DNA from: an uncultured Planctomycetota bacterium | GTDB lineage: Bacteria > Planctomycetota > Phycisphaerae > UBA1845 > Fen-1342 | Direction: 5' to 3' | Assembly: GCA_900696535.1 (NCBI GenBank) | Contig: CAADGM010000009.1 | Span: 1 to 52,126, forward strand | DNA length: 52,126 bases | Shown here: positions 18,101 through 25,971 of the stretch, piece by piece | Position numbering within the stretch: the first letter of the stretch is position 1 | Layout of the letters: each line of letters begins with the position of its first letter | Program-made: the position numbers and the translations under genes | Notes under the pieces: generated by a model | The model's database searches: none | The model's input: the letters and a program-made list of their open reading frames with translations, nothing else | Told to the model about the DNA's origin: nothing

Positions 18101-18784
18101 TCAGGCGTGCGGGCCCTCGCCCGCCGCCCGGATCGCCCGCGCGCAGCGCGCCAGCACGTCGTCGAGCATCGACCGCGTCAGGCGTCCCGTCAGTGTGTTC
18201 TGCTGGCTGGGGTGGTACGACGCGAGCAACAGGCGGCCGTCCGACAGCGTCCGCGAGACGCCGTGCCCGAACCTTTCCGAACGCTCGCCCAGCAGCCGCG
18301 TCGCCTCGCGCCACGCCAGCCCGCCGAGAGCAAGCAGGACGCGCCATGGCGTCTGCCGCAGCGTTTCTTCGAGGTACGGTCGGCAGGCAGTGAGTTCCGG
18401 CGGGGTCGGCTTGTTGTCGGGTGGAGCGCATCGACAAGCCGCCGTAATGAGCACGCCCGGAATGCTCAGCCCGTCGTCACGGCCGGTCGAGTGCGGCTGG
18501 CTGGCCAGTCCGGCGCGGTGCAGGGCGGCGAACAGCCACTCGCCGCTGCGGTCGCCGGTGAACATGCGCCCCGTGCGATTCGCACCGTGGGCACCCGGGG
18601 CCAGCCCGACAATAAGGAGCCGGGCCCGCGGGTCGCCGAAGTTCGGGACCGGGCGGCCCCAGTAGCGCTCGTCGCGATACGCGGCCCGGCGAATCCTCGC
18701 CACCTGCCGGCAATGAGCGCGCAAGCGCGGGCAGCGCTGGCAGCGGATGACGCGGCGATTCTGCGACTCCAGCCAGTCGGACAT
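18101..18784 (-). CDS. Uracil-DNA glycosylase, family 5 type (UdgB-like)
   Basis: The 227-residue protein has the N-terminal cysteines [11 protein letters not shown] and later [16 protein letters not shown] with TACRPYL, which fit the 4Fe-4S ligands of family 4/5 enzymes. The active-site loop is [19 protein letters not shown]; the absence of the Glu of family 4 and the Ala after PG point to family 5 (UDGb). [13 protein letters not shown] is the DNA-minor-groove motif. Such enzymes remove uracil and hypoxanthine from DNA. It starts 22 bases after nrnA and is probably in the same operon. Confidence 0.88.
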
Positions 18785-18806
18785 GGTCGATCCCCGCGGG
18801 TAGCGC

Positions 18807-19820
18807 TCAGTTAACCGGGCCGTCCCGTAGCGCTGCCTCCGCCTCGGCGATCACGCGCGGCACAACGTCGTCCCAAGCGCCGGTCACGCGAGCGCCGGCA
18901 GCGCGAAGATGTCCGCCGCCGCCGAAGCGGCCAGCGAGGGCCGCCACGTCGAGGAACGACTTGCTGCGGAGGTTGAGGCGGACGACGCCGCCGACGTCCT
19001 CGGTGAACAGGATGATCGCCTCGACGCCCGCGAGCCGGCCAGCCTCGTTAACGAGATCCTCGGTGAGCGCGCGGTCCGCCCCGGTCTCGGCGAAGTCAGC
19101 CTGGCGAAGCTTGAGCACGGCCAGCCGCCCGCCGGCGTGCAGTTCCAGCGAGAGGAGCATCCGCCCGACCAGGCGGAGCTTGCTGATCGGGTCGCGCGCG
19201 TAGATGGGGCGATACAGTGCGCTCGGCGACGCGCCGACCTCGCACAGCCGCGCCGCCGCGCGCAGTGTTCGCGCGTCGGTGTTCGCGAAGCGAAACCAGC
19301 CGCAGTCCGTCGCCAGGCCGATGAACAGGGCTTCCGCGATTGTGGGTGTGAGCTGGAGACCCGCCGCCGGCAGCCATTCGGCGATCATCAGGCAGGTGGC
19401 CGCGGCGGACTCGTCGATCACCCGCAGGTCTTCCGGTCGCGTGCCGATCGGGTCGCGGGTGGCGTGGTGATCGATGACGAGCGTGCGCGGCGCGCGGCCG
19501 AGCAGGTCAGCCACCGGCTCGAGCTGCGACAGGGAGCAGGTGTCCAGGATCACCAGCGCGTCACAACCGGGTTCAAGCGTCCGCTGCTCCTCGGGCCAGT
19601 ACCGCCAGCTCACGGCGCTCGCCAGGCTCGGGTAGCGGGGCGGGAAGGGGCGCTCGAACAGGGTACAGGCCGGCCGACAACCAAGCTGCTCGACGGCGAG
19701 GGCAAGCCCGACCAACGCCCCGAGGGCGTCCCCGTCCGGCTTTCGGTGGGTGAGCAGCAGCGGGCGCTGGGCCGCGGCGAGCCAGTCGCGGAGGCGTTCG
19801 AGTTCGGCGCGGCCGGGCAT
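18807..19820 (-). CDS. DHH-family phosphoesterase, NrnA-like (nanoRNase / pAp phosphatase)
   Basis: The 337-residue protein has an N-terminal DHH domain: [16 protein letters not shown] (motif I), VILDTCSL (motif II), [14 protein letters not shown] (the DHH motif III), then [17 protein letters not shown]. The C-terminal DHHA1 domain has [12 protein letters not shown]. This is the NrnA layout, an enzyme that degrades 2-5 nt RNAs and may also dephosphorylate pAp or cleave cyclic-dinucleotide products. ATG 19820 matches the family start; the open frame further upstream is the antisense of the next gene. The uracil glycosylase follows. Confidence 0.88.
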
Positions 19821-19890
19821 GGGGCAGGATTGTAGCCGCGGCGGGTCGCCAGGCGGGGCCAGGAGCGCCGACGCCGGCGCGATCCTCGCG

Positions 19891-19919
19891 TTGGCTAACG
19901 CGGCGCCGCGACGTATGAT
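19891..19919 (+). promoter_or_regulatory. Predicted promoter of the PHP-like / amphi-Trp / PhoU-kinase cluster
   Basis: TTGGCT (19891-19896) and TATGAT (19914-19919) are separated by exactly 17 bases. Transcription from about 19926 would give a leader of about 70 bases before ATG 19995, and makes the TTG at 19932 an unlikely start. Confidence 0.55.
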
Positions 19920-19994
19920 GCTCGTAAGTCTTTGCGACAGCGGAACGTCCGGGTGGACCGGCCGGTCCGGCCGCCGATTCGCAGACGTCGTCGA

Positions 19995-21149
19995 ATGGTG
20001 TTGAAGACTACAGCCAACGGGACCGAGCTTGACCTGAGCCGGATCGCGCCCGAGCCCAGCGAGTGGGACGATCGCGCCTACCGGCTCATGATCACCGAGA
20101 CACTGACCCCCGAGCAGATCCGCCGGGTGGCGACGCCGTCCCGCATCGAGCCGCGGCAGGAGGAGGTCCTGGCGATCCACTGGCACCCCGAGTGGATCCC
20201 CATGGACGTGATCATGCAGCGCGTGCGGGCGATGTATCCGAACCTGCGCGCGCAGCTCATCATTCCGACGCAGCACAACGTGCTCATGGAGTACGACGGG
20301 CTGGCGGGCGTCGAGATCGACTGCTTCTCGGCCCCGTTCAACCGCAAGGTGCAGCTCCTGGCGCACTTCAGCGCCGCGCGGGTGCAGCGGGCCGACGCCC
20401 TGCGGGCCATGCTCTCGCACACTTTCAAGTACCGCGCCAGCCAGCTCTGGGAGTACATCGACTCGATCCTCGAACCTGCGTACGAGGAGCGCGTCGAGCG
20501 GGCGGCGGCCCAGACCGGTGCCGATGCGGACCTGGTGCGCTTCTGCCGACTCCATGTGGCGCGGCTGAAGGCGCTCATCCAGCGACACGAGCGCGTCACT
20601 CCGCCAGACATGTTCAAGAACAAGCTCGTGCGGAACTACTTTCACGCCCTGCGTGAGTTGTACGACGAGCACCTCATCGGCCACGCACAGGTGTTCCTGC
20701 GGGCGGTCAAGGAGATCGTCAAGGCGCACTTCTCGCTGACGTACTTCTACCGTGTGCCGGAGATCATCGAGGAAGTCCGTGGGCTCGGCGGCGGGGTGGT
20801 GATCCCGCACCCGGAGCAGTTCTGGCCGATCCTCCTGGCGGACTACGATGTTGACGGCATCGAGGTCTGGAACCCGCAGTCGCGCGAGTTCACCGAGTTC
20901 CTCATCCAGGTCGTCAGCAAGCAGAACAAGACGCGACCCGCCGGTCGGCGCCCCCTGCTCATCACGATGGGCGATGACACGCACTTCGGCGAGAAGGTGC
21001 TCAATCCGGCCTACCAGGAGAAGGAGAAGGCTGGTCGCGAGCTGGGGCTCCAGCCCGCCTGGGACGAGCTGGGTATCCGCAAGCGGCTCAGCGCCGCCAG
21101 CACGGACCGGGGCCGCGTGATCGAGGAGTACCGTGCGCGGCTGCTGTAG
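19995..21149 (+). CDS. PHP-like metal-dependent phosphoesterase domain protein
   Basis: The 384-residue protein has no named family I can give with certainty. Several blocks look like PHP domains: EEVLAIHWHPEWIPMDVIM (a His-x-His near the N-terminus), GGGVVIPHPEQFWPIL, DVDGIEVWNPQSREFTEFL, and LLITMGDDTHFGEKVLNP, which resembles the 'GSDaH' end motif. A central insert of about 150 residues is helical and charged (VLRNYF-like region, HLIGHAQVFLRAVKEIVKAHF). The likely activity is hydrolysis of a phosphoester using bound metals; the substrate is unknown. ATG 19995 is chosen from the promoter position. It is the first gene of a same-strand trio; the next start is 165 bases on. Confidence 0.7.
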   Translation: MVLKTTANGTELDLSRIAPEPSEWDDRAYRLMITETLTPEQIRRVATPSRIEPRQEEVLAIHWHPEWIPMDVIMQRVRAMYPNLRAQLIIPTQHNVLMEYDGLAGVEIDCFSAPFNRKVQLLAHFSAARVQRADALRAMLSHTFKYRASQLWEYIDSILEPAYEERVERAAAQTGADADLVRFCRLHVARLKALIQRHERVTPPDMFKNKLVRNYFHALRELYDEHLIGHAQVFLRAVKEIVKAHFSLTYFYRVPEIIEEVRGLGGGVVIPHPEQFWPILLADYDVDGIEVWNPQSREFTEFLIQVVSKQNKTRPAGRRPLLITMGDDTHFGEKVLNPAYQEKEKAGRELGLQPAWDELGIRKRLSAASTDRGRVIEEYRARLL

Positions 21150-21314
21150 CCGCGGTGTCGAGTCGTGGCGGGCTTCGCGTCGCAGGCCGGGCGGGCAGGC
21201 GACGCGAATCTGGGAACGGATTGGGCGCCGGTCAGGGATGCCCGGCGCGGCCTGATCGGGCGGACTGGGCCGCTGGAGGGCGGCTTGCTCCGGCCCATTA
21301 CAAGGATGGCACCG

Positions 21315-21596
21315 ATGCCGAGTCGAGATGCGTTCGAATACGAATCGTTGCAGGATATCGAGTCGATCGTCGGGTACCTCGGCGCGCTGGCGGACGGGCT
21401 GAAGCGCGGTCACCTGTCGCTGTCGAGCAACGGCAAGCTGCTCGCGCTGCGCCCGACCGGGCTGCTGCGCCTCTCGGTCGAGGCCAAGCGGGGCAAGACC
21501 CGCTCGCGGCTGATCGTGAAGGTCTCGTGGCGCGAGGACGCCCCGGACGAGCCCAAGACCGCCGAGCCGCTCAAGATCCGCCCGGGTCCGGCCTAG
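21315..21596 (+). CDS. Amphi-Trp domain protein
   Basis: The 93-residue protein has the amphi-Trp pattern: EYESLQDIESIVGYLGALADGL, then GHLSLSSNGKLLALRP, alternating strands LLRLSVEAKRGKTRSRLIVKV and the closing SWRED with its Trp. From memory, this domain was defined together with the 'GAK' gene group (ATP-grasp, CofD-like and HprK-like kinase proteins). ATG 21315 is preceded by AAGGA at 8 bases, which decides against ATG 21306 and the long upstream extension. The stop TAG is one base before the next start, so the two genes are almost surely co-translated. Confidence 0.75.
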   Translation: MPSRDAFEYESLQDIESIVGYLGALADGLKRGHLSLSSNGKLLALRPTGLLRLSVEAKRGKTRSRLIVKVSWREDAPDEPKTAEPLKIRPGPA

Positions 21597-21597
21597 G

Positions 21598-23247
21598 ATG
21601 CCGCGCATGCACTCCTATGCCGGCATTGCCCGGAACTTCCGCTTCATGCTCCTGCACGTCCGCAAGCAGCTCGAGCACACGCGCAAGCTGCTGGGGGACG
21701 CCGACCTGCGCTGGATCCGGCCCATCCGCAGTGGCGAGGGCTATATCGACACGCAGAAAAGCATGATCGAGAACGAGTGCTTCGCCTTCATCCGCACCAC
21801 GCCCAACGAGGACGAGCAGACCATCGCCTCGGTGCGGGCCGTCAACGTCATCACCGCCAACCTCGAGCGCATCGCCGACTTCGTGGTCAACATCGCGCGG
21901 CAGATGGAGCACTTCACGGAGCCGGCGGCGGCCCGCTGGTTCGACGGGCCCGCGTTCGTCACGAAGGTGCTGGCCGGGCTGGACCTGATCGAGCCCGCGC
22001 TCTTCGAGCGCGACAGCGACCTGGCGATGAAGATTTGCGCCGTGGAGGACGACCTCGACCGGCTGTACCAGGCTCAGCTCAAGCGGATTATCGAGGCGCT
22101 GCGTGCTTCGCAGTCTGTCGAGAACCTCATTACGTCGCTGTTCATCGTCCACTACCTCGAACGCATGGGCGACGCGTTGCTCAATGTCGGTGAGGCGATC
22201 CTCTTCGCGGTGCTCGGTGAGCCGTTGAAGATGCACCAGTTCCGCGTCATCAACCAGGCCCTGGCCGCCGGCGACGCCAGCGCCGCGCCCCTCGCCGAAG
22301 CCGAAGTCGACAGCATCTGGGGCACGCGCAGCGGCGTGCGCATCGGGAGCGTGCAGTCGGACGAGGTCGAGGGTGGCCGCCGGGTGCTGTTCAAGGAAGG
22401 CAGCCCCGACAAGCTGGCCCGCGAGAACGCCGCCCTCCAGCGCTGGGAGCAGGTCGCGCCCGGACTCGTGCCGCGTGTCGTCCGCTACCAGTCCGAGGGC
22501 GAGGGCGCGGCCCTGCTGCTCCAGTACCTCGACGGGCAGACGCTCCAGGAGATCGTGCTCAACAACGACTGGCCGTTCGTGCAGCGGGTGCTGGCCCGTC
22601 TCGAGGTCGTCCTCCGCGAGGCGTGGACACGGACGCGCAACCCGCAGCCCGTATCCGGCGGGTACCTCCAGCAGCTCACCGACCGGATCGAGGACGTGTA
22701 CCGCCTGCATCCCGAGTTCCGCGGAGACGCGGTCCAGGTCAACACGCTGCGCTCGCCGGCGCTGGTCGAGCGGCTCGCGGAGGTCGCGTCGCTGGACGTC
22801 GAGCTGCCCGCCCCGTTCAGCGTCTTCATTCACGGCGACTTCAACCTGGACAACATCCTGTACAACGTCGAGCGGGACAGCGTGCACTTCGTGGACGTGC
22901 AGCGCTCGCGCGACATGGACTACGTGCAGGACGTCTCCGTCTTCCTGGTGTCGAGCTTCCGGCTGCCGGTCACGAGCCGGCGGGCGCGTCGCAGCCTGGA
23001 GCAACTCGCCCTGGCGTTCCTGCACTTCGCCCGCCAATTCGCCGCCGAGAACGAGGACGCGACGTTCGAGGCTCGCCTGGCGCTCGGGCTGATCCGTTCG
23101 TTCGTGACCTCGACCCGCTTCGAGCTCAACCGGCGCTTTGCCGGCGGCATGTACCAGCGGGCGACGCTGCTGCTGGGTAAGCTGGCCAAGCACCGCGGGC
23201 AGCCCTGGAGCGACTTTCGCGTCCCCGACAGCGTGCTGATTTACTGA
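21598..23247 (+). CDS. PhoU domain fused to an APH/choline-kinase-like phosphotransferase
   Basis: The 549-residue protein has two halves. Residues 1-240 are two PhoU-type three-helix bundles with the metal motifs ANLERIADFVVNIA and YLERMGDALLNVGEAI. Residues ~250-549 are a protein-kinase-like small-molecule kinase: the ATP lysine in RRVLFKEGSP, LLLQYLDGQTLQEIV, the catalytic loop FIHGDFNLDNILYN and the metal-binding VHFVDVQRSRDMDYVQD. All catalytic residues expected of aminoglycoside phosphotransferase-type kinases are present. PhoU normally links phosphate uptake to PhoR signalling; fusion to a kinase suggests phosphate-responsive phosphorylation of an unknown small molecule. ATG 21607 with AGGA 8 bases before is an alternative start. 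No pst or phoB gene is nearby. Confidence 0.8.
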   Translation: MPRMHSYAGIARNFRFMLLHVRKQLEHTRKLLGDADLRWIRPIRSGEGYIDTQKSMIENECFAFIRTTPNEDEQTIASVRAVNVITANLERIADFVVNIARQMEHFTEPAAARWFDGPAFVTKVLAGLDLIEPALFERDSDLAMKICAVEDDLDRLYQAQLKRIIEALRASQSVENLITSLFIVHYLERMGDALLNVGEAILFAVLGEPLKMHQFRVINQALAAGDASAAPLAEAEVDSIWGTRSGVRIGSVQSDEVEGGRRVLFKEGSPDKLARENAALQRWEQVAPGLVPRVVRYQSEGEGAALLLQYLDGQTLQEIVLNNDWPFVQRVLARLEVVLREAWTRTRNPQPVSGGYLQQLTDRIEDVYRLHPEFRGDAVQVNTLRSPALVERLAEVASLDVELPAPFSVFIHGDFNLDNILYNVERDSVHFVDVQRSRDMDYVQDVSVFLVSSFRLPVTSRRARRSLEQLALAFLHFARQFAAENEDATFEARLALGLIRSFVTSTRFELNRRFAGGMYQRATLLLGKLAKHRGQPWSDFRVPDSVLIY

Positions 23248-23389
23248 TCCCCGCGGGCCGGCCCCGGCGGCGCGGGCGGCACGGGGCGTCCCCGATTCCA
23301 CGATCGGCCCGGGCTTATACGCGACGCTGCCTCGCGCCGCGAGTATCCTGTCGGCGCGCCCGAAAGGTCGCAGCCAGGAGGACTGGTCC

Positions 23390-23791
23390 GTGTGCCCGGT
23401 GTGTGCCAGCCCGATGATGATCGTCGAGCTTCAGGGTGTTGAGGTCGATCACTGCCCGGCCTGTCGGGGCACGTGGTTCGATAGCGGCGAGCTGGAGCTG
23501 GTCGCCGAGATCGCCGGCATCGAGCCGGAGCGGCTGCGCGGCGTCCTGCTGCCCGAGCCCGGGGCGAGGGCGGGCACGCGACGCTGCCCGCGCTGCGGCC
23601 GGCGGATGCAGCCGGCCACGGTCGGCCCGCGCGAGCCGGTGCACATCGACCGTTGCCCCGATGGCGACGGCGTCTGGCTGGACGCCGGCGAGCTGGCCAG
23701 CGTCGTGCGAAACTACCACGAGGGCGACCTCGGTAAGCTGGCCGAGTTCTTCGGCGACATGTTCCGCAGCGAACTCGAGCACGGGCGCTGA
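23390..23791 (+). CDS. Tandem zf-TFIIB zinc-ribbon protein
   Basis: The 133-residue protein has two copies of the bacterial zf-TFIIB unit. Copy 1 is MCPVC with DHCPACRGTWFDSGEL; copy 2 is RRCPRCGRRM with DRCPDGDGVWLDAGEL, where the fourth cysteine is replaced by Gly, so the second site may not bind zinc well. A short acidic/helical tail follows. The function of this family is not established. GTG 23390 has AGGAGG 8 bases upstream. lemA starts 23 bases after the stop and the genes look co-transcribed. Confidence 0.85.
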   Translation: MCPVCASPMMIVELQGVEVDHCPACRGTWFDSGELELVAEIAGIEPERLRGVLLPEPGARAGTRRCPRCGRRMQPATVGPREPVHIDRCPDGDGVWLDAGELASVVRNYHEGDLGKLAEFFGDMFRSELEHGR

Positions 23792-23814
23792 GCCGCGCCC
23801 CTGGGAGGATGCCT

Positions 23815-24381
23815 GTGAGCGCAACACTGATTGGCGTGCTGGTCGTGGCCGGCGTAATCCTGATCCTCTTCCTGTGGGGCGTGGGAATCTACAACACGCT
23901 CATCCGCCTGCGCAACGAGGTGAAGAACGCTTGGGCACAGATCGACGTCCAGCTCAAGCGGCGGCACGATCTCATCCCCAACCTCGTGGAGACGGTCAAG
24001 GGCTATGCCGGGCACGAGCGCAGCACGCTCGAAGCCGTCGTGAACGCGCGGACGAAGGCGGTCTCCGCCGGCAGCATCGAGGAGAAGGTACAGGCCGAGG
24101 GCGAGCTGTCGCGGACCCTGGGCCGCCTGCTCATGCTGGTCGAGAACTACCCCGACCTGAAGGCCAACCAGAACTTCCTGGCCCTCCAGGAGGAGCTGAC
24201 CAGCACCGAGAACAGGATCGGCTTCGCGCGGCAGTACTACAACGACAGCGTCATGCGCTACAACAACCAGATCCAGACCTTCCCACCGAATATCGTCGCC
24301 GGCCTGTGTGGCTTCACGGAGTCGGTGTTCTTCGAGGTCCAGGACGCGGCGCAGCGCGAGGTGCCGCAGGTGAAGTTCTAG
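23815..24381 (+). CDS. lemA: LemA family membrane protein
   Basis: The 188-residue protein has a single N-terminal membrane helix (VLVVAGVILILFLWGVGIY), then the LemA coiled core: YNTLIRLRNEVKNAWAQIDV, RRHDLIPNLVETVKGYAGHE, NYPDLKANQNFLALQEEL and FFEVQDAAQREVPQVKF. LemA proteins are small exported or membrane-anchored helical proteins commonly paired with HtpX-like proteases, as here. GGGAGG ends directly at an ATG (23809), which leaves no spacing, so GTG 23815 in the same frame, 6 bases from the GGAGG, is the better start. The protease gene follows after 33 bases. Confidence 0.93.
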   Translation: MSATLIGVLVVAGVILILFLWGVGIYNTLIRLRNEVKNAWAQIDVQLKRRHDLIPNLVETVKGYAGHERSTLEAVVNARTKAVSAGSIEEKVQAEGELSRTLGRLLMLVENYPDLKANQNFLALQEELTSTENRIGFARQYYNDSVMRYNNQIQTFPPNIVAGLCGFTESVFFEVQDAAQREVPQVKF

Positions 24382-24414
24382 CCGGCTTCTCGGTTCCGAG
24401 TCAGTGCCTCGGCC

Positions 24415-25971
24415 ATGTGGGAAGCCATCCGCGCCAACCAGCGTCGCTCGCTCCTGCTCATCATGGTGATGGGCCTGATCCTCGTCGCGCTCGGCGCGAC
24501 CATCGGGCAGGTTGTCGCGAACGAGATCGCGCCCCCCGATGAGCACGAGTGGCAGCGTGCCGCGCGGCTGTTCGATCACAACGCACTGGTTGAACGCGGG
24601 CTTGCGCCGGCGCGCGAGCCGGCACGGGGTGCCCGGGCGGCCGCGCCGCCGTGGGGGGCGCTGATCGGCGCGGGCGTAGCGATCGTGATCTGGCTGGGAC
24701 TGTGGCTGACGGCGGCGGTGTCGGGCGACGCCATCCTGCTCCGCGCGGGCCGGGCCTTTGAGCTCGAGAAGAGCGACGCGCCGCAATTGTGGAACGTCGT
24801 CGAGGAGATGACCATCGCGGCCGGCCTGCCCAGGATGCCCCGCGTCTTCCTGGTCGATGACCCGTCGATGAACGCCTTCGCGGTCGGCTATTACCCCGAC
24901 CGCGCGGCCGTCGCGGTGACGGCCGGCCTGCTCAAGCGGCTCAGCCGCGACGAGCTCCAGGGCGTGATCGCCCACGAGATCGGCCACATCCGCAATCGGG
25001 ATGTCCGCTTCATGACGCTGGCCGGCGTTATGGTCGGCGCGATCGTCCTGCTGTCGCGCGGCTTTCTGCGCGGCGTGCTGCGCGGGGGCGTCGGCCGGAG
25101 ACGCGGCTCGGGCAAGGGCGGCGGGGCGGGCGTGCTCATCGTATTGGCCATTGCCGTCATCCTGGCGATCGTCGCGCCCATCGCCGCACAGCTCCTCTAC
25201 TTCGCATGCTCCCGTAAGCGCGAGTACCTGGCAGATGCCTCGGCGGCGCTGTTCACACGCTACCCCGAGGGGCTGGCGTCGGCGCTCAAGAAGATCGCCG
25301 GACAGTCGTACGCCCAGGTAGAGACCAGCGACGTCATTGCCCCGCTCTGCATCGTCAACCCCCTCCAGGCCCGGGCCGCCTTCACGCTCTTCTCGACCCA
25401 TCCTCCCACCGACAAGCGCATCCAGGTGCTGCGCGGCATGGCCGGTGCCGGCCTGGCGGCCTACCAGGCTGCGTACGAAGCGGTTCACGGGCGCGGGGCC
25501 GCCTGCGTGGGTGCCCGTTCGCTGGCCGAGAGCGCGGACGTGGCCAAGCGGCCGCCCGCCCCGGCGCCGGAGCAGCGCGAGGAGATCGTCCAGCAGGCTC
25601 GCCTGGTCGGACGCCTGCTCGACAAGGCGCTGGCGCTCGTCGTCATCGGGTGCCCTTGCGGCGCGCAGCTCAAGCTGACTCCCGACGACGCGCTCGCCTC
25701 CATTACCTGCCCCCGCTGTGGCCGGTCACACGACGTGCCGCAGGCCGAGCGCCAGCCTGCGCGCGACGAAGCCGGCGCCGCCCGCGCCCCGGCCCCGGAA
25801 CGCCCCCTGCGCTACCGTCGCCGCACCAGCGGCTGGGAGTCCTTCCGCTGCGTGTGCGGTGGCACGGTCCAGCTCAGCCCCAAGTTCTCGGCGGAGCGGA
25901 CAAGCTGCCCCCGCTGTCATCGCACGATCCAGGTGACCGGCGCCGCCGGGGGGGCGCGCGCGCAGCCGTAG
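24415..25971 (+). CDS. M48 family (HtpX-like) membrane metalloprotease with two C-terminal zinc ribbons
   Basis: The 518-residue protein has membrane helices at about 12-35 and 80-105, a catalytic HExxH in VIAHEIGHIRNRD, further helices around 200-260, and the third zinc ligand region CSRKREYLADASAALFTR. This is the HtpX/Ste24 core that degrades damaged membrane proteins. Unusually, the tail adds two zinc ribbons: GCPCGAQLKL with TCPRCGRSH, and RCVCGGTVQL with SCPRCHRTI, separated by a proline-rich linker. The lemA-protease pairing is common. The zinc-ribbon gene upstream shares the theme. Substrates are unknown. Confidence 0.9.
   Translation: MWEAIRANQRRSLLLIMVMGLILVALGATIGQVVANEIAPPDEHEWQRAARLFDHNALVERGLAPAREPARGARAAAPPWGALIGAGVAIVIWLGLWLTAAVSGDAILLRAGRAFELEKSDAPQLWNVVEEMTIAAGLPRMPRVFLVDDPSMNAFAVGYYPDRAAVAVTAGLLKRLSRDELQGVIAHEIGHIRNRDVRFMTLAGVMVGAIVLLSRGFLRGVLRGGVGRRRGSGKGGGAGVLIVLAIAVILAIVAPIAAQLLYFACSRKREYLADASAALFTRYPEGLASALKKIAGQSYAQVETSDVIAPLCIVNPLQARAAFTLFSTHPPTDKRIQVLRGMAGAGLAAYQAAYEAVHGRGAACVGARSLAESADVAKRPPAPAPEQREEIVQQARLVGRLLDKALALVVIGCPCGAQLKLTPDDALASITCPRCGRSHDVPQAERQPARDEAGAARAPAPERPLRYRRRTSGWESFRCVCGGTVQLSPKFSAERTSCPRCHRTIQVTGAAGGARAQP

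What the first reader, a model, noticed from the sequence alone, without database searches (positions are those of the whole stretch)
19891..23247. Three-gene cluster: PHP-like phosphoesterase, amphi-Trp protein and PhoU-kinase fusion
Seen: a good promoter (TTGGCT-17-TATGAT), then a PHP-like protein, a 93-residue amphi-Trp protein, and, one base later, a protein joining two PhoU bundles to an intact APH/choline-kinase-like kinase (HGDFNLDNILYN, FVDVQRSRDMD). Known: PhoU senses or relays phosphate status; APH-type kinases phosphorylate small hydroxyl compounds; amphi-Trp was defined with a set of uncharacterised kinase-linked genes ('GAK' group, recalled from memory). Inference: a phosphate-responsive write/erase module, with the kinase adding and the PHP protein removing a phosphate from an unknown metabolite or polymer, and amphi-Trp as its carrier, lid or partner. 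No pst, pho or antibiotic genes are close, which argues against simple phosphate uptake or drug resistance.
Basis: partly seen in the sequence, partly recalled or inferred. Interest (0 to 1): 0.75.

Follow-up and report, generated by a model that had tools for sequence, protein, structure and literature searches.

The report
Kinase-eraser half of GAK system
Three neighbouring genes that recur together in several bacterial phyla encode a kinase-like protein, a small protein that is likely its partner, and an enzyme predicted to remove phosphate; together they likely switch a phosphate on and off an unknown compound, as half of an uncharacterised gene set called the GAK system.

Summary
In detail: promoter-like site, PHP-like gene (start more likely 19995), amphi-Trp, PhoU-APH kinase. 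I compared 15 genomes with a PhoU-APH locus: amphi-Trp lies directly upstream of the kinase in 14, and the NCBIfam 'GAK system' ATP-grasp gene directly downstream in 12. In the window's own assembly the ATP-grasp gene, HprK-related kinase B and a second amphi-Trp are on another contig (C144); no GAK CofD-like gene was found. The PHP-like family (no PHP model hit among 65 members) has a confidently predicted PHP fold with invariant metal-site residues. Best evidence for an eraser: the 5 of 15 genomes without the PHP gene carry a calcineurin-like metallophosphoesterase instead (3 also a histidine phosphatase), as do Rhodobacterales plasmids; none of the 15 has both. The swap maps to one branch of the kinase tree, so it is one event. 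PhoU as phosphate sensor is not supported: as aligned, its metal motifs are lost in three plasmid versions that keep the kinase site. Amphi-Trp as covalent carrier is not supported: no invariant attachment residue. The substrate is unknown. Verdict: real, conserved; a new variant of a named but uncharacterised system.

The parts
19891..19919 (+). promoter-like site TTGGCT-17-TATGAT, 75 bases before the likely start codon
   Evidence: only consensus match in 19800-23450, 0.2 expected from shuffles; function not tested
19995..21149 (+). PHP-fold phosphoesterase-like gene (384 aa; an upstream TTG at 19932 would give 405 aa)
21315..21596 (+). amphi-Trp protein, the type found beside PhoU-APH (93 aa)
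   Evidence: TIGR04354 58.3 bits, PF20068 31.3 bits; alignment A3
21598..23247 (+). PhoU-APH fusion kinase (549 aa)
   Evidence: PF01895 75.4 bits, PF01636 43 bits; 1228 homologues at E <= 0.001 among the 7998 candidates scored, best 120 listed
21598..22245 (+). PhoU-like part of the fusion (about residues 1-216, my estimate), with ExxxD motifs E90/D94 and E188/D192
   Evidence: motifs invariant in 132 of 132 aligned; the model of the homologue P0036 matches PhoU 4q25 at TMt 0.84
22402..22980 (+). APH-type kinase part matched by PF01636 (residues 269-461); K266 lies just before it, then E276, H412-G-D414, N419, D433
   Evidence: residues invariant in 132 of 132 aligned

Best explanation
The trio is the kinase-phosphoesterase half of a GAK-type gene system, whose ATP-grasp and HprK-related kinase genes lie on contig C144 of the same assembly; in it the PhoU-APH kinase would add, and the PHP-fold enzyme would remove, a phosphate on an unknown small compound, with amphi-Trp likely a binding partner of the kinase. 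Shown: the gene order, its recurrence, the conserved kinase-site residues, the predicted PHP fold with invariant metal-site residues, and the alternation of PHP with a calcineurin-like metallophosphoesterase. Inferred: that the two enzymes oppose each other on one compound; that this compound is made or modified by the GAK ATP-grasp enzyme (its next-best models are MptN/RimK-type amino-acid ligases) and, where present, the CofD-like protein; that PhoU serves as a docking or regulatory body rather than as a phosphate sensor; that amphi-Trp docks on the kinase (one natural fusion).
For: Fifteen genomes with a PhoU-APH locus were compared (6 of 294 in the window's phylum; G164, met through its amphi-Trp gene; four loci; four further genomes of the phylum of L006). 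Amphi-Trp directly upstream in 14 of 15; GAK ATP-grasp directly downstream in 12 of 15; HprK-related kinase B over its cut-off in 10 of 15. In the phylum of L006 (titled Nitrospinota) PHP and PhoU-APH occur in the same 5 of 24 genomes. Own genome: ATP-grasp 414 bits (cut-off 300), HprK_rel_B 436.6 (cut-off 200) and amphi-Trp 60.6 bits on C144, tetranucleotide r = 0.86 with the window. Swap: PHP at the locus in 10 of 15 genomes; metallophosphoesterase in the other 5 and in none of the 10, in the upstream slot in 4 of those 5; among 72,556 plasmid records it occurs (E <= 1e-20) in the same five records as PhoU-APH (E <= 1e-30). Kinase residues 132 of 132 and 3 of 3 plasmid homologues read. One amphi-Trp-PhoU-APH fusion, P0036.
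Against: No substrate or assay. PHP and PhoU-APH could act at successive steps rather than oppose each other. The swap needs one change on the kinase tree (one branch, 100/99), so it is not repeated replacement. In the 3 plasmid loci read, amphi-Trp is not beside the kinase; in L066 it is not directly upstream. In the 3 plasmid metallophosphoesterases only two of my five motif patterns matched (GDxxDKG and GNHD), against five of five in the L037-L040 ones. Only one fusion was found, and in its model amphi-Trp has pLDDT mostly under 55, so no docking is predicted. PHP-fold enzymes are not all phosphomonoesterases. A counterpart of RNase AM Asp20 is not identified. The window's assembly has 6.14% contamination, so C144 could be foreign. 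G166 has the trio but no GAK ATP-grasp match.
Confidence: 0.5

Rival explanations
1. Biosynthetic pathway: kinase and PHP enzyme act at successive steps on one route, for example phosphorylation as a protecting or activating step that is later removed, and the GAK set makes an unknown cofactor-like compound (ATP-grasp ligation, CofD-like transfer).
For: ATP-grasp next to MptN/RimK ligase models and a CofD-like gene in part of the loci; CofD and RimK-type ligases act in F420 and methanopterin maturation (recalled). One form or the other of the phosphoesterase is present in 15 of 15 genomes.
Against: CofD_rel_GAK is absent from 5 of 11 genomes tested, the window's included; I noticed no scaffold-building enzyme that recurs in the loci, but did not search for one.
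Confidence: 0.27
2. Protein-modifying switch: one or both kinases phosphorylate a protein (amphi-Trp or another), by analogy with HprK acting on HPr, and the ATP-grasp enzyme adds amino acids as RimK does; PHP, or metallophosphoesterase plus histidine phosphatase, reverse it.
For: HprK-related kinase B keeps a P-loop (pattern found in 10 of 11; in the eleventh, L038, missed by the pattern but seen by eye); several phosphatases; one amphi-Trp-kinase fusion.
Against: Amphi-Trp has no invariant Ser, Thr, Lys, Cys or His in 22 sequences; Ser11 in 14 of 17 of the type beside PhoU-APH. APH-type kinases mostly act on small molecules (recalled).
Confidence: 0.13
3. Phosphate-responsive module: PhoU senses phosphate status or relays it and gates the kinase.
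For: PhoU ExxxD motifs invariant in 132 of 132 aligned; PhoU fold TMt 0.84 for the homologue P0036.
Against: As aligned, motifs lost in 3 of 3 plasmid homologues that keep the kinase site; the own genome's PhoU beside ABC-transporter genes is on C110, and neither that PhoU nor its permease has a relative at 17 loci at E <= 1e-5.
Confidence: 0.08
4. Anti-phage defence or drug-resistance cassette.
For: Patchy distribution (6 of 294 genomes), plasmid carriage in Rhodobacterales, APH-type kinase.
Against: No PADLOC hit at E <= 0.001 for 8 proteins of the system; APH models far below cut-offs (33.3 against 205); no match in 50,697 phage records at E <= 1e-10 for the kinase or PHP protein. Neighbouring genes were not searched for defence systems.
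Confidence: 0.02

Closest known systems
NCBIfam 'GAK system' families: TIGR04354 amphi-Trp, TIGR04355 HprK-related kinase B, TIGR04356 ATP-grasp, TIGR04357 CofD-like
   Same: amphi-Trp in the window; ATP-grasp and HprK-B over cut-off on contig C144; in other genomes one run of genes with the trio or its kinase
   Different: split over two loci here, no CofD-like match in the assembly; no GAK-named model hits PhoU-APH or the PHP protein
PHP phosphoesterases BAD_1165 (3o0f), RNase AM (9etk, 7ug9), Cv1693 (2yb1)
   Different: 14-20% identity; the TDH motif (recalled) is TQH in 64 of 65; no residue assigned to RNase AM Asp20; no Pfam PHP hit in 65 members
PhoU (4q25, 1sum, 1t72)
   Same: fold of the PhoU part of the homologue P0036, TMt 0.83-0.85; ExxxD motifs
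   Different: fused to a kinase; below the PhoU equivalog cut-off (68.5 against 130.25 bits); motifs lost, as aligned, in plasmid homologues
APH(3')/choline-kinase fold kinases
   Same: K, E, HGDxxxxN and D residues; Foldseek E 1e-7 to APH(3')-Ia for P0036
   Different: 33.3 bits against a cut-off of 205 for APH(3'); nothing points to drugs as substrates

Membership tests
GAK system (NCBIfam set) | amphi-Trp protein over the TIGR04354 cut-off | tested here: met
   58.3 bits against 31
GAK system (NCBIfam set) | GAK ATP-grasp enzyme TIGR04356 in the genome | tested here: met
   G000:C144, 414 bits against 300
GAK system (NCBIfam set) | HprK-related kinase B TIGR04355 in the genome | tested here: met
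   G000:C144, 436.6 bits against 200
GAK system (NCBIfam set) | CofD-like protein TIGR04357 in the genome | tested here: not met
   no match in G000 (assembly 95.92% complete); also none in 4 others of the 11 genomes tested. So filed as a CofD-less GAK-type variant, not as a full GAK set
GAK system (NCBIfam set) | components in one locus | tested here: not met
   trio on C9 (window), ATP-grasp and HprK-B on C144; both lie inside their contigs
GAK system (NCBIfam set) | XXXCH-domain protein (recalled member of the set) | not tested
   no genome search made
PHP phosphoesterase superfamily | PHP fold | tested here: met
PHP phosphoesterase superfamily | trinuclear metal-site ligands | tested here: inconclusive
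   seven of the eight RNase AM ligands named in PMC9410882 have an invariant counterpart by order and motif (H62, H94, E107, H124, H272, D328, H330); Asp20 counterpart not identified, no residue superposition was available
PhoU phosphate-signalling protein | over the PhoU equivalog cut-off | tested here: not met
   68.5 against 130.25 bits; no pst gene among 5 scanned neighbours, 18101-25971
aminoglycoside phosphotransferase | over an APH equivalog cut-off | tested here: not met
   best 33.3 against 205 bits

The most novel reading that the evidence does not exclude
The GAK system is a two-kinase switch with exchangeable erasers that makes and tunes a so far unknown phosphorylated, amino-acid-ligated metabolite (a cofactor or a second messenger); the PHP-fold protein of this window is its eraser, an unrecognised PHP subfamily, replaced in a second branch of the system by a dedicated metallophosphoesterase, mostly with a histidine phosphatase.
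Probability: 0.25. Interest if true: 0.85.

Novelty: new variant of a known kind. Interest (0 to 1): 0.62.

Why it matters
A set of enzyme genes seen here in Planctomycetota, Nitrospinota and plasmids of Rhodobacterales (its kinase also in named Desulfovibrionales) has names but, in the library searched, no paper that I found (0 papers for 'amphi-Trp' and for 'GAK system'; nothing relevant in the listings). Adding the PhoU-APH kinase and two exchangeable phosphoesterases turns a list of domains into a testable circuit: remove the eraser, find the phosphorylated compound that piles up, and show that it needs the kinase. It also offers a function class for a large protein family (1579 homologues at E <= 0.001 among 7996 candidates scored; none of the 120 listed carries a Pfam domain).

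Tried and rejected
Papers: eight searches on the system or its domain pairs returned nothing on it. The listings (1 and 5 papers, the five for 'XXXCH' alone) look unrelated from title and abstract; in one of them, PMC12389409, a search of the main text found neither XXXCH nor GAK. The acronym GAK is not explained in any call. led to PMC9410882, of which I read passages, not the whole text.

Sequence search of the Protein Data Bank with the PHP protein and its alignment gave no PHP structure; only the fold comparison did. In Pfam, 9 families were touched weakly by members of the PHP alignment, none a PHP model; the most frequent, DOPA_dioxygen in 4 of 65 with best E 7e-4, I take as chance. The amphi-Trp profile had weak matches, best a designed protein at E 2e-4, not pursued.

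A second structure job on the natural fusion P0036 was meant to show where amphi-Trp docks; that part is not confidently modelled. A search for more amphi-Trp fusions found only P0036 itself (1 of 265 candidates; it sees only relatives that share short exact words).

One amphi-Trp type for each kinase: I considered this and drop it. The second type (KKDKEK-like) lies by HprK-B or CofD in several loci (L005, L042, L065, L066, L043), but in L037, L038 and L039 it stands beside the first type just upstream of PhoU-APH, in L064 upstream of PHP.

Amphi-Trp as covalent carrier: rejected for lack of an invariant attachment residue. Phosphate uptake: rejected. Defence: no PADLOC hit. Phage cargo: no match. 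PHP protein in plasmids: no match at E <= 1e-5.

Several independent PHP replacements: rejected, the kinase tree needs one change (L040 is a long branch and its place is unsure; L041 was left out because its kinase gene is broken). In L003 another metallophosphoesterase lies upstream of PHP (L003:6595-8085); it shows no similarity to the swap family at E <= 1e-4, so it was not counted.

Linkage estimate from contig lengths: of the best 40 PhoU-APH proteins 31 have a longest contig of at least 6 kb, and 23 of these 31 share that contig length with a PHP-like protein of the 120 listed; for all 120 it is 33 of 88, a lower bound because the PHP list is cut.
Full report
What is there. The window is the whole of contig C9 of its assembly. 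Between 19891 and 23247 on the + strand lie one promoter-like site, a PHP-like gene, an amphi-Trp gene and a PhoU-APH fusion gene. The PHP-like gene most likely starts at 19995, where the homologue entry P0121 starts. To its left, on the other strand, are a DHH-family phosphoesterase and a uracil-DNA-glycosylase-family gene; to its right a zinc-ribbon gene, LemA and an HtpX-like protease. None of these five has a relative at 17 other loci (tblastn, E <= 1e-5).

The trio recurs. PhoU-APH has 1228 homologues at E <= 0.001 among the 7998 candidates scored (best 120 listed), among them named Desulfonatronum, Fundidesulfovibrio and Desulfocurvibacter; the PHP-like protein has 1579 among 7996. In two annotated metagenome genomes the locus tags of the two genes differ by two (CHACPFDD_01094/01096, HJJLKODD_02794/02796), leaving room for one gene between them. 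In a sample of 294 genomes of the phylum 6 have PhoU-APH at E <= 1e-60, 20 have amphi-Trp, and 6 of 6 PhoU-APH genes have amphi-Trp directly upstream, three of them two in a row.

It belongs to a larger set. I read 15 genomes with a PhoU-APH locus: G000 (window), G104, G166, G191, G203, G273, G164 (kinase gene broken into two frames), L003-L006 (two Phycisphaerae, one Spirochaetia, one Nitrospinota by their titles) and G298, G309, G311, G314 of the phylum of L006. Amphi-Trp is directly upstream of the kinase in 14 of 15; the exception, L066, has PHP directly upstream and two amphi-Trp genes downstream. Directly downstream of the kinase is the GAK ATP-grasp gene in 12 of 15; the exceptions are the window, G166, and G273, whose contig ends inside the kinase gene. 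HprK-related kinase B is over its cut-off in 10 of 15 genomes. The GAK CofD-like protein is over its cut-off in 6 of 11 genomes tested. Names were confirmed by NCBIfam for genes of L005, L042, L063, L037 and L003; at the other loci the assignment rests on BLAST similarity to these or on the family searches of whole genomes. In the window's own assembly the ATP-grasp gene, HprK-B and a second amphi-Trp are on contig C144, inside it, and 20 kb of C144 resemble the window in tetranucleotide use (r = 0.86, against 0.71 for a piece of C110 and 0.47-0.70 for seven other genomes). No CofD-like match was found there. So the set is split in this organism.

The eraser swap. Ten of the 15 genomes have the PHP gene at the locus. 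The other five (G104, G191, G203, G273, G164) have no match to it in the assembly (2 of 294 genomes matched at E <= 1e-15, G000 and G166). All five have instead a calcineurin-like metallophosphoesterase (PF00149 for the four at the loci): in four in the slot upstream of amphi-Trp, in G164 on another contig. Three of the four also have a histidine-phosphatase gene there (PF00300, RHG motif). None of the ten PHP genomes has that metallophosphoesterase, and none of their loci that histidine phosphatase. On plasmids of Qingshengfaniella, Pseudooceanicola and Tritonibacter the deposited annotation reads phosphotransferase, GAK ATP-grasp, HprK-related kinase B, histidine phosphatase, metallophosphoesterase, amphi-Trp, with a GAK CofD-like gene beside it in two of the three that I read (3 of 5 matching records). 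These are the same form: their metallophosphoesterases are 33-37% and their histidine phosphatases 42-43% identical to those of G104, and the metallophosphoesterase (E <= 1e-20) occurs in the same five plasmid records as the kinase (E <= 1e-30) among 72,556. In their metallophosphoesterases only two of my five motif patterns matched, so their activity is less sure. In a tree of 17 kinases, 10 PHP rows and 7 metallophosphoesterase rows are separated by one branch with support 100/99. The exchange therefore happened once at this sampling, and is not a series of independent replacements. It still suggests that the system keeps needing a phosphoester-cleaving enzyme while its fold may change.

The kinase. 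K266, E276, H412, G413, D414, N416, N419 and D433 are invariant in 132 of 132 aligned sequences (119 listed homologues, the window and 12 loci, some of them identical; the truncated L039 and the broken L041 were left out) and in 3 of 3 plasmid homologues. The PhoU motifs E90/D94 and E188/D192 are invariant in the 132 but not, as aligned, in the plasmid homologues (E90 to D, D94 to R, E188 to R, Y or S, D192 kept or E; a four-sequence alignment of distant proteins, so single columns may be off). PhoU therefore is probably not a metal or phosphate sensor in all members; a docking or regulatory part is more likely (inference). The genome's own PhoU gene, beside ABC-transporter genes, is on C110.

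Amphi-Trp. Only W72 is invariant in 22 sequences. No Ser, Thr, Lys, Cys or His is invariant, so a covalent carrier is unlikely. Two types can be told apart; the window has the one that stands beside PhoU-APH, C144 the other, but the place of the second type varies between loci. One homologue, P0036, joins amphi-Trp to PhoU-APH in one chain; a search for others found none. The predicted model of P0036 shows PhoU and APH folds but not where amphi-Trp sits.

How it most likely works. The kinase adds and the PHP enzyme removes a phosphate on a small compound that the GAK ATP-grasp enzyme, and where present the CofD-like protein, make or modify; amphi-Trp holds on to the kinase. Everything in that sentence beyond the enzyme classes is inference. 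Rivals are given with their weights.

Novelty. The GAK families are named in NCBIfam but I found no paper on them in the library searched. New here, as far as those searches go: PhoU-APH and a PHP subfamily as steady partners, the PHP/metallophosphoesterase alternation, and a split, CofD-less form.

Noticed in passing
window 18101-19820 (-): Uracil-DNA-glycosylase-family gene and a DHH/DHHA1 phosphoesterase gene, divergent from the trio; no relative at 17 other loci.
   Followed up: partly
window 23390-25971 (+): Zinc-ribbon gene, LemA and an HtpX-like M48 protease with a zinc-ribbon-like tail follow the trio; no relative at 17 other loci.
   Followed up: partly
L067:12095-13390 (G000:C110): A Mu-type phage portal match (PF06074) lies a few kilobases from the own genome's PhoU and ABC-transporter genes, so a prophage may sit beside them.
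   Followed up: no
L005 (Spirochaetia metagenome genome): The full set in a genome of a phylum where only 1 of 247 genomes searched has the kinase: transfer or a misbinned contig.
   Followed up: partly
L041:7033-8651 (G164): The PhoU-APH gene is broken into two frames while amphi-Trp and ATP-grasp flank it; decay or assembly error.
   Followed up: no
L043:6727-8194 (G107): A CofD-like gene of the GAK kind with an amphi-Trp gene stands without the rest of the set in the 14 kb read.
   Followed up: no
L003:6595-8085: A different calcineurin-like phosphoesterase gene just upstream of the PHP gene; no similarity to the swap family found.
   Followed up: partly
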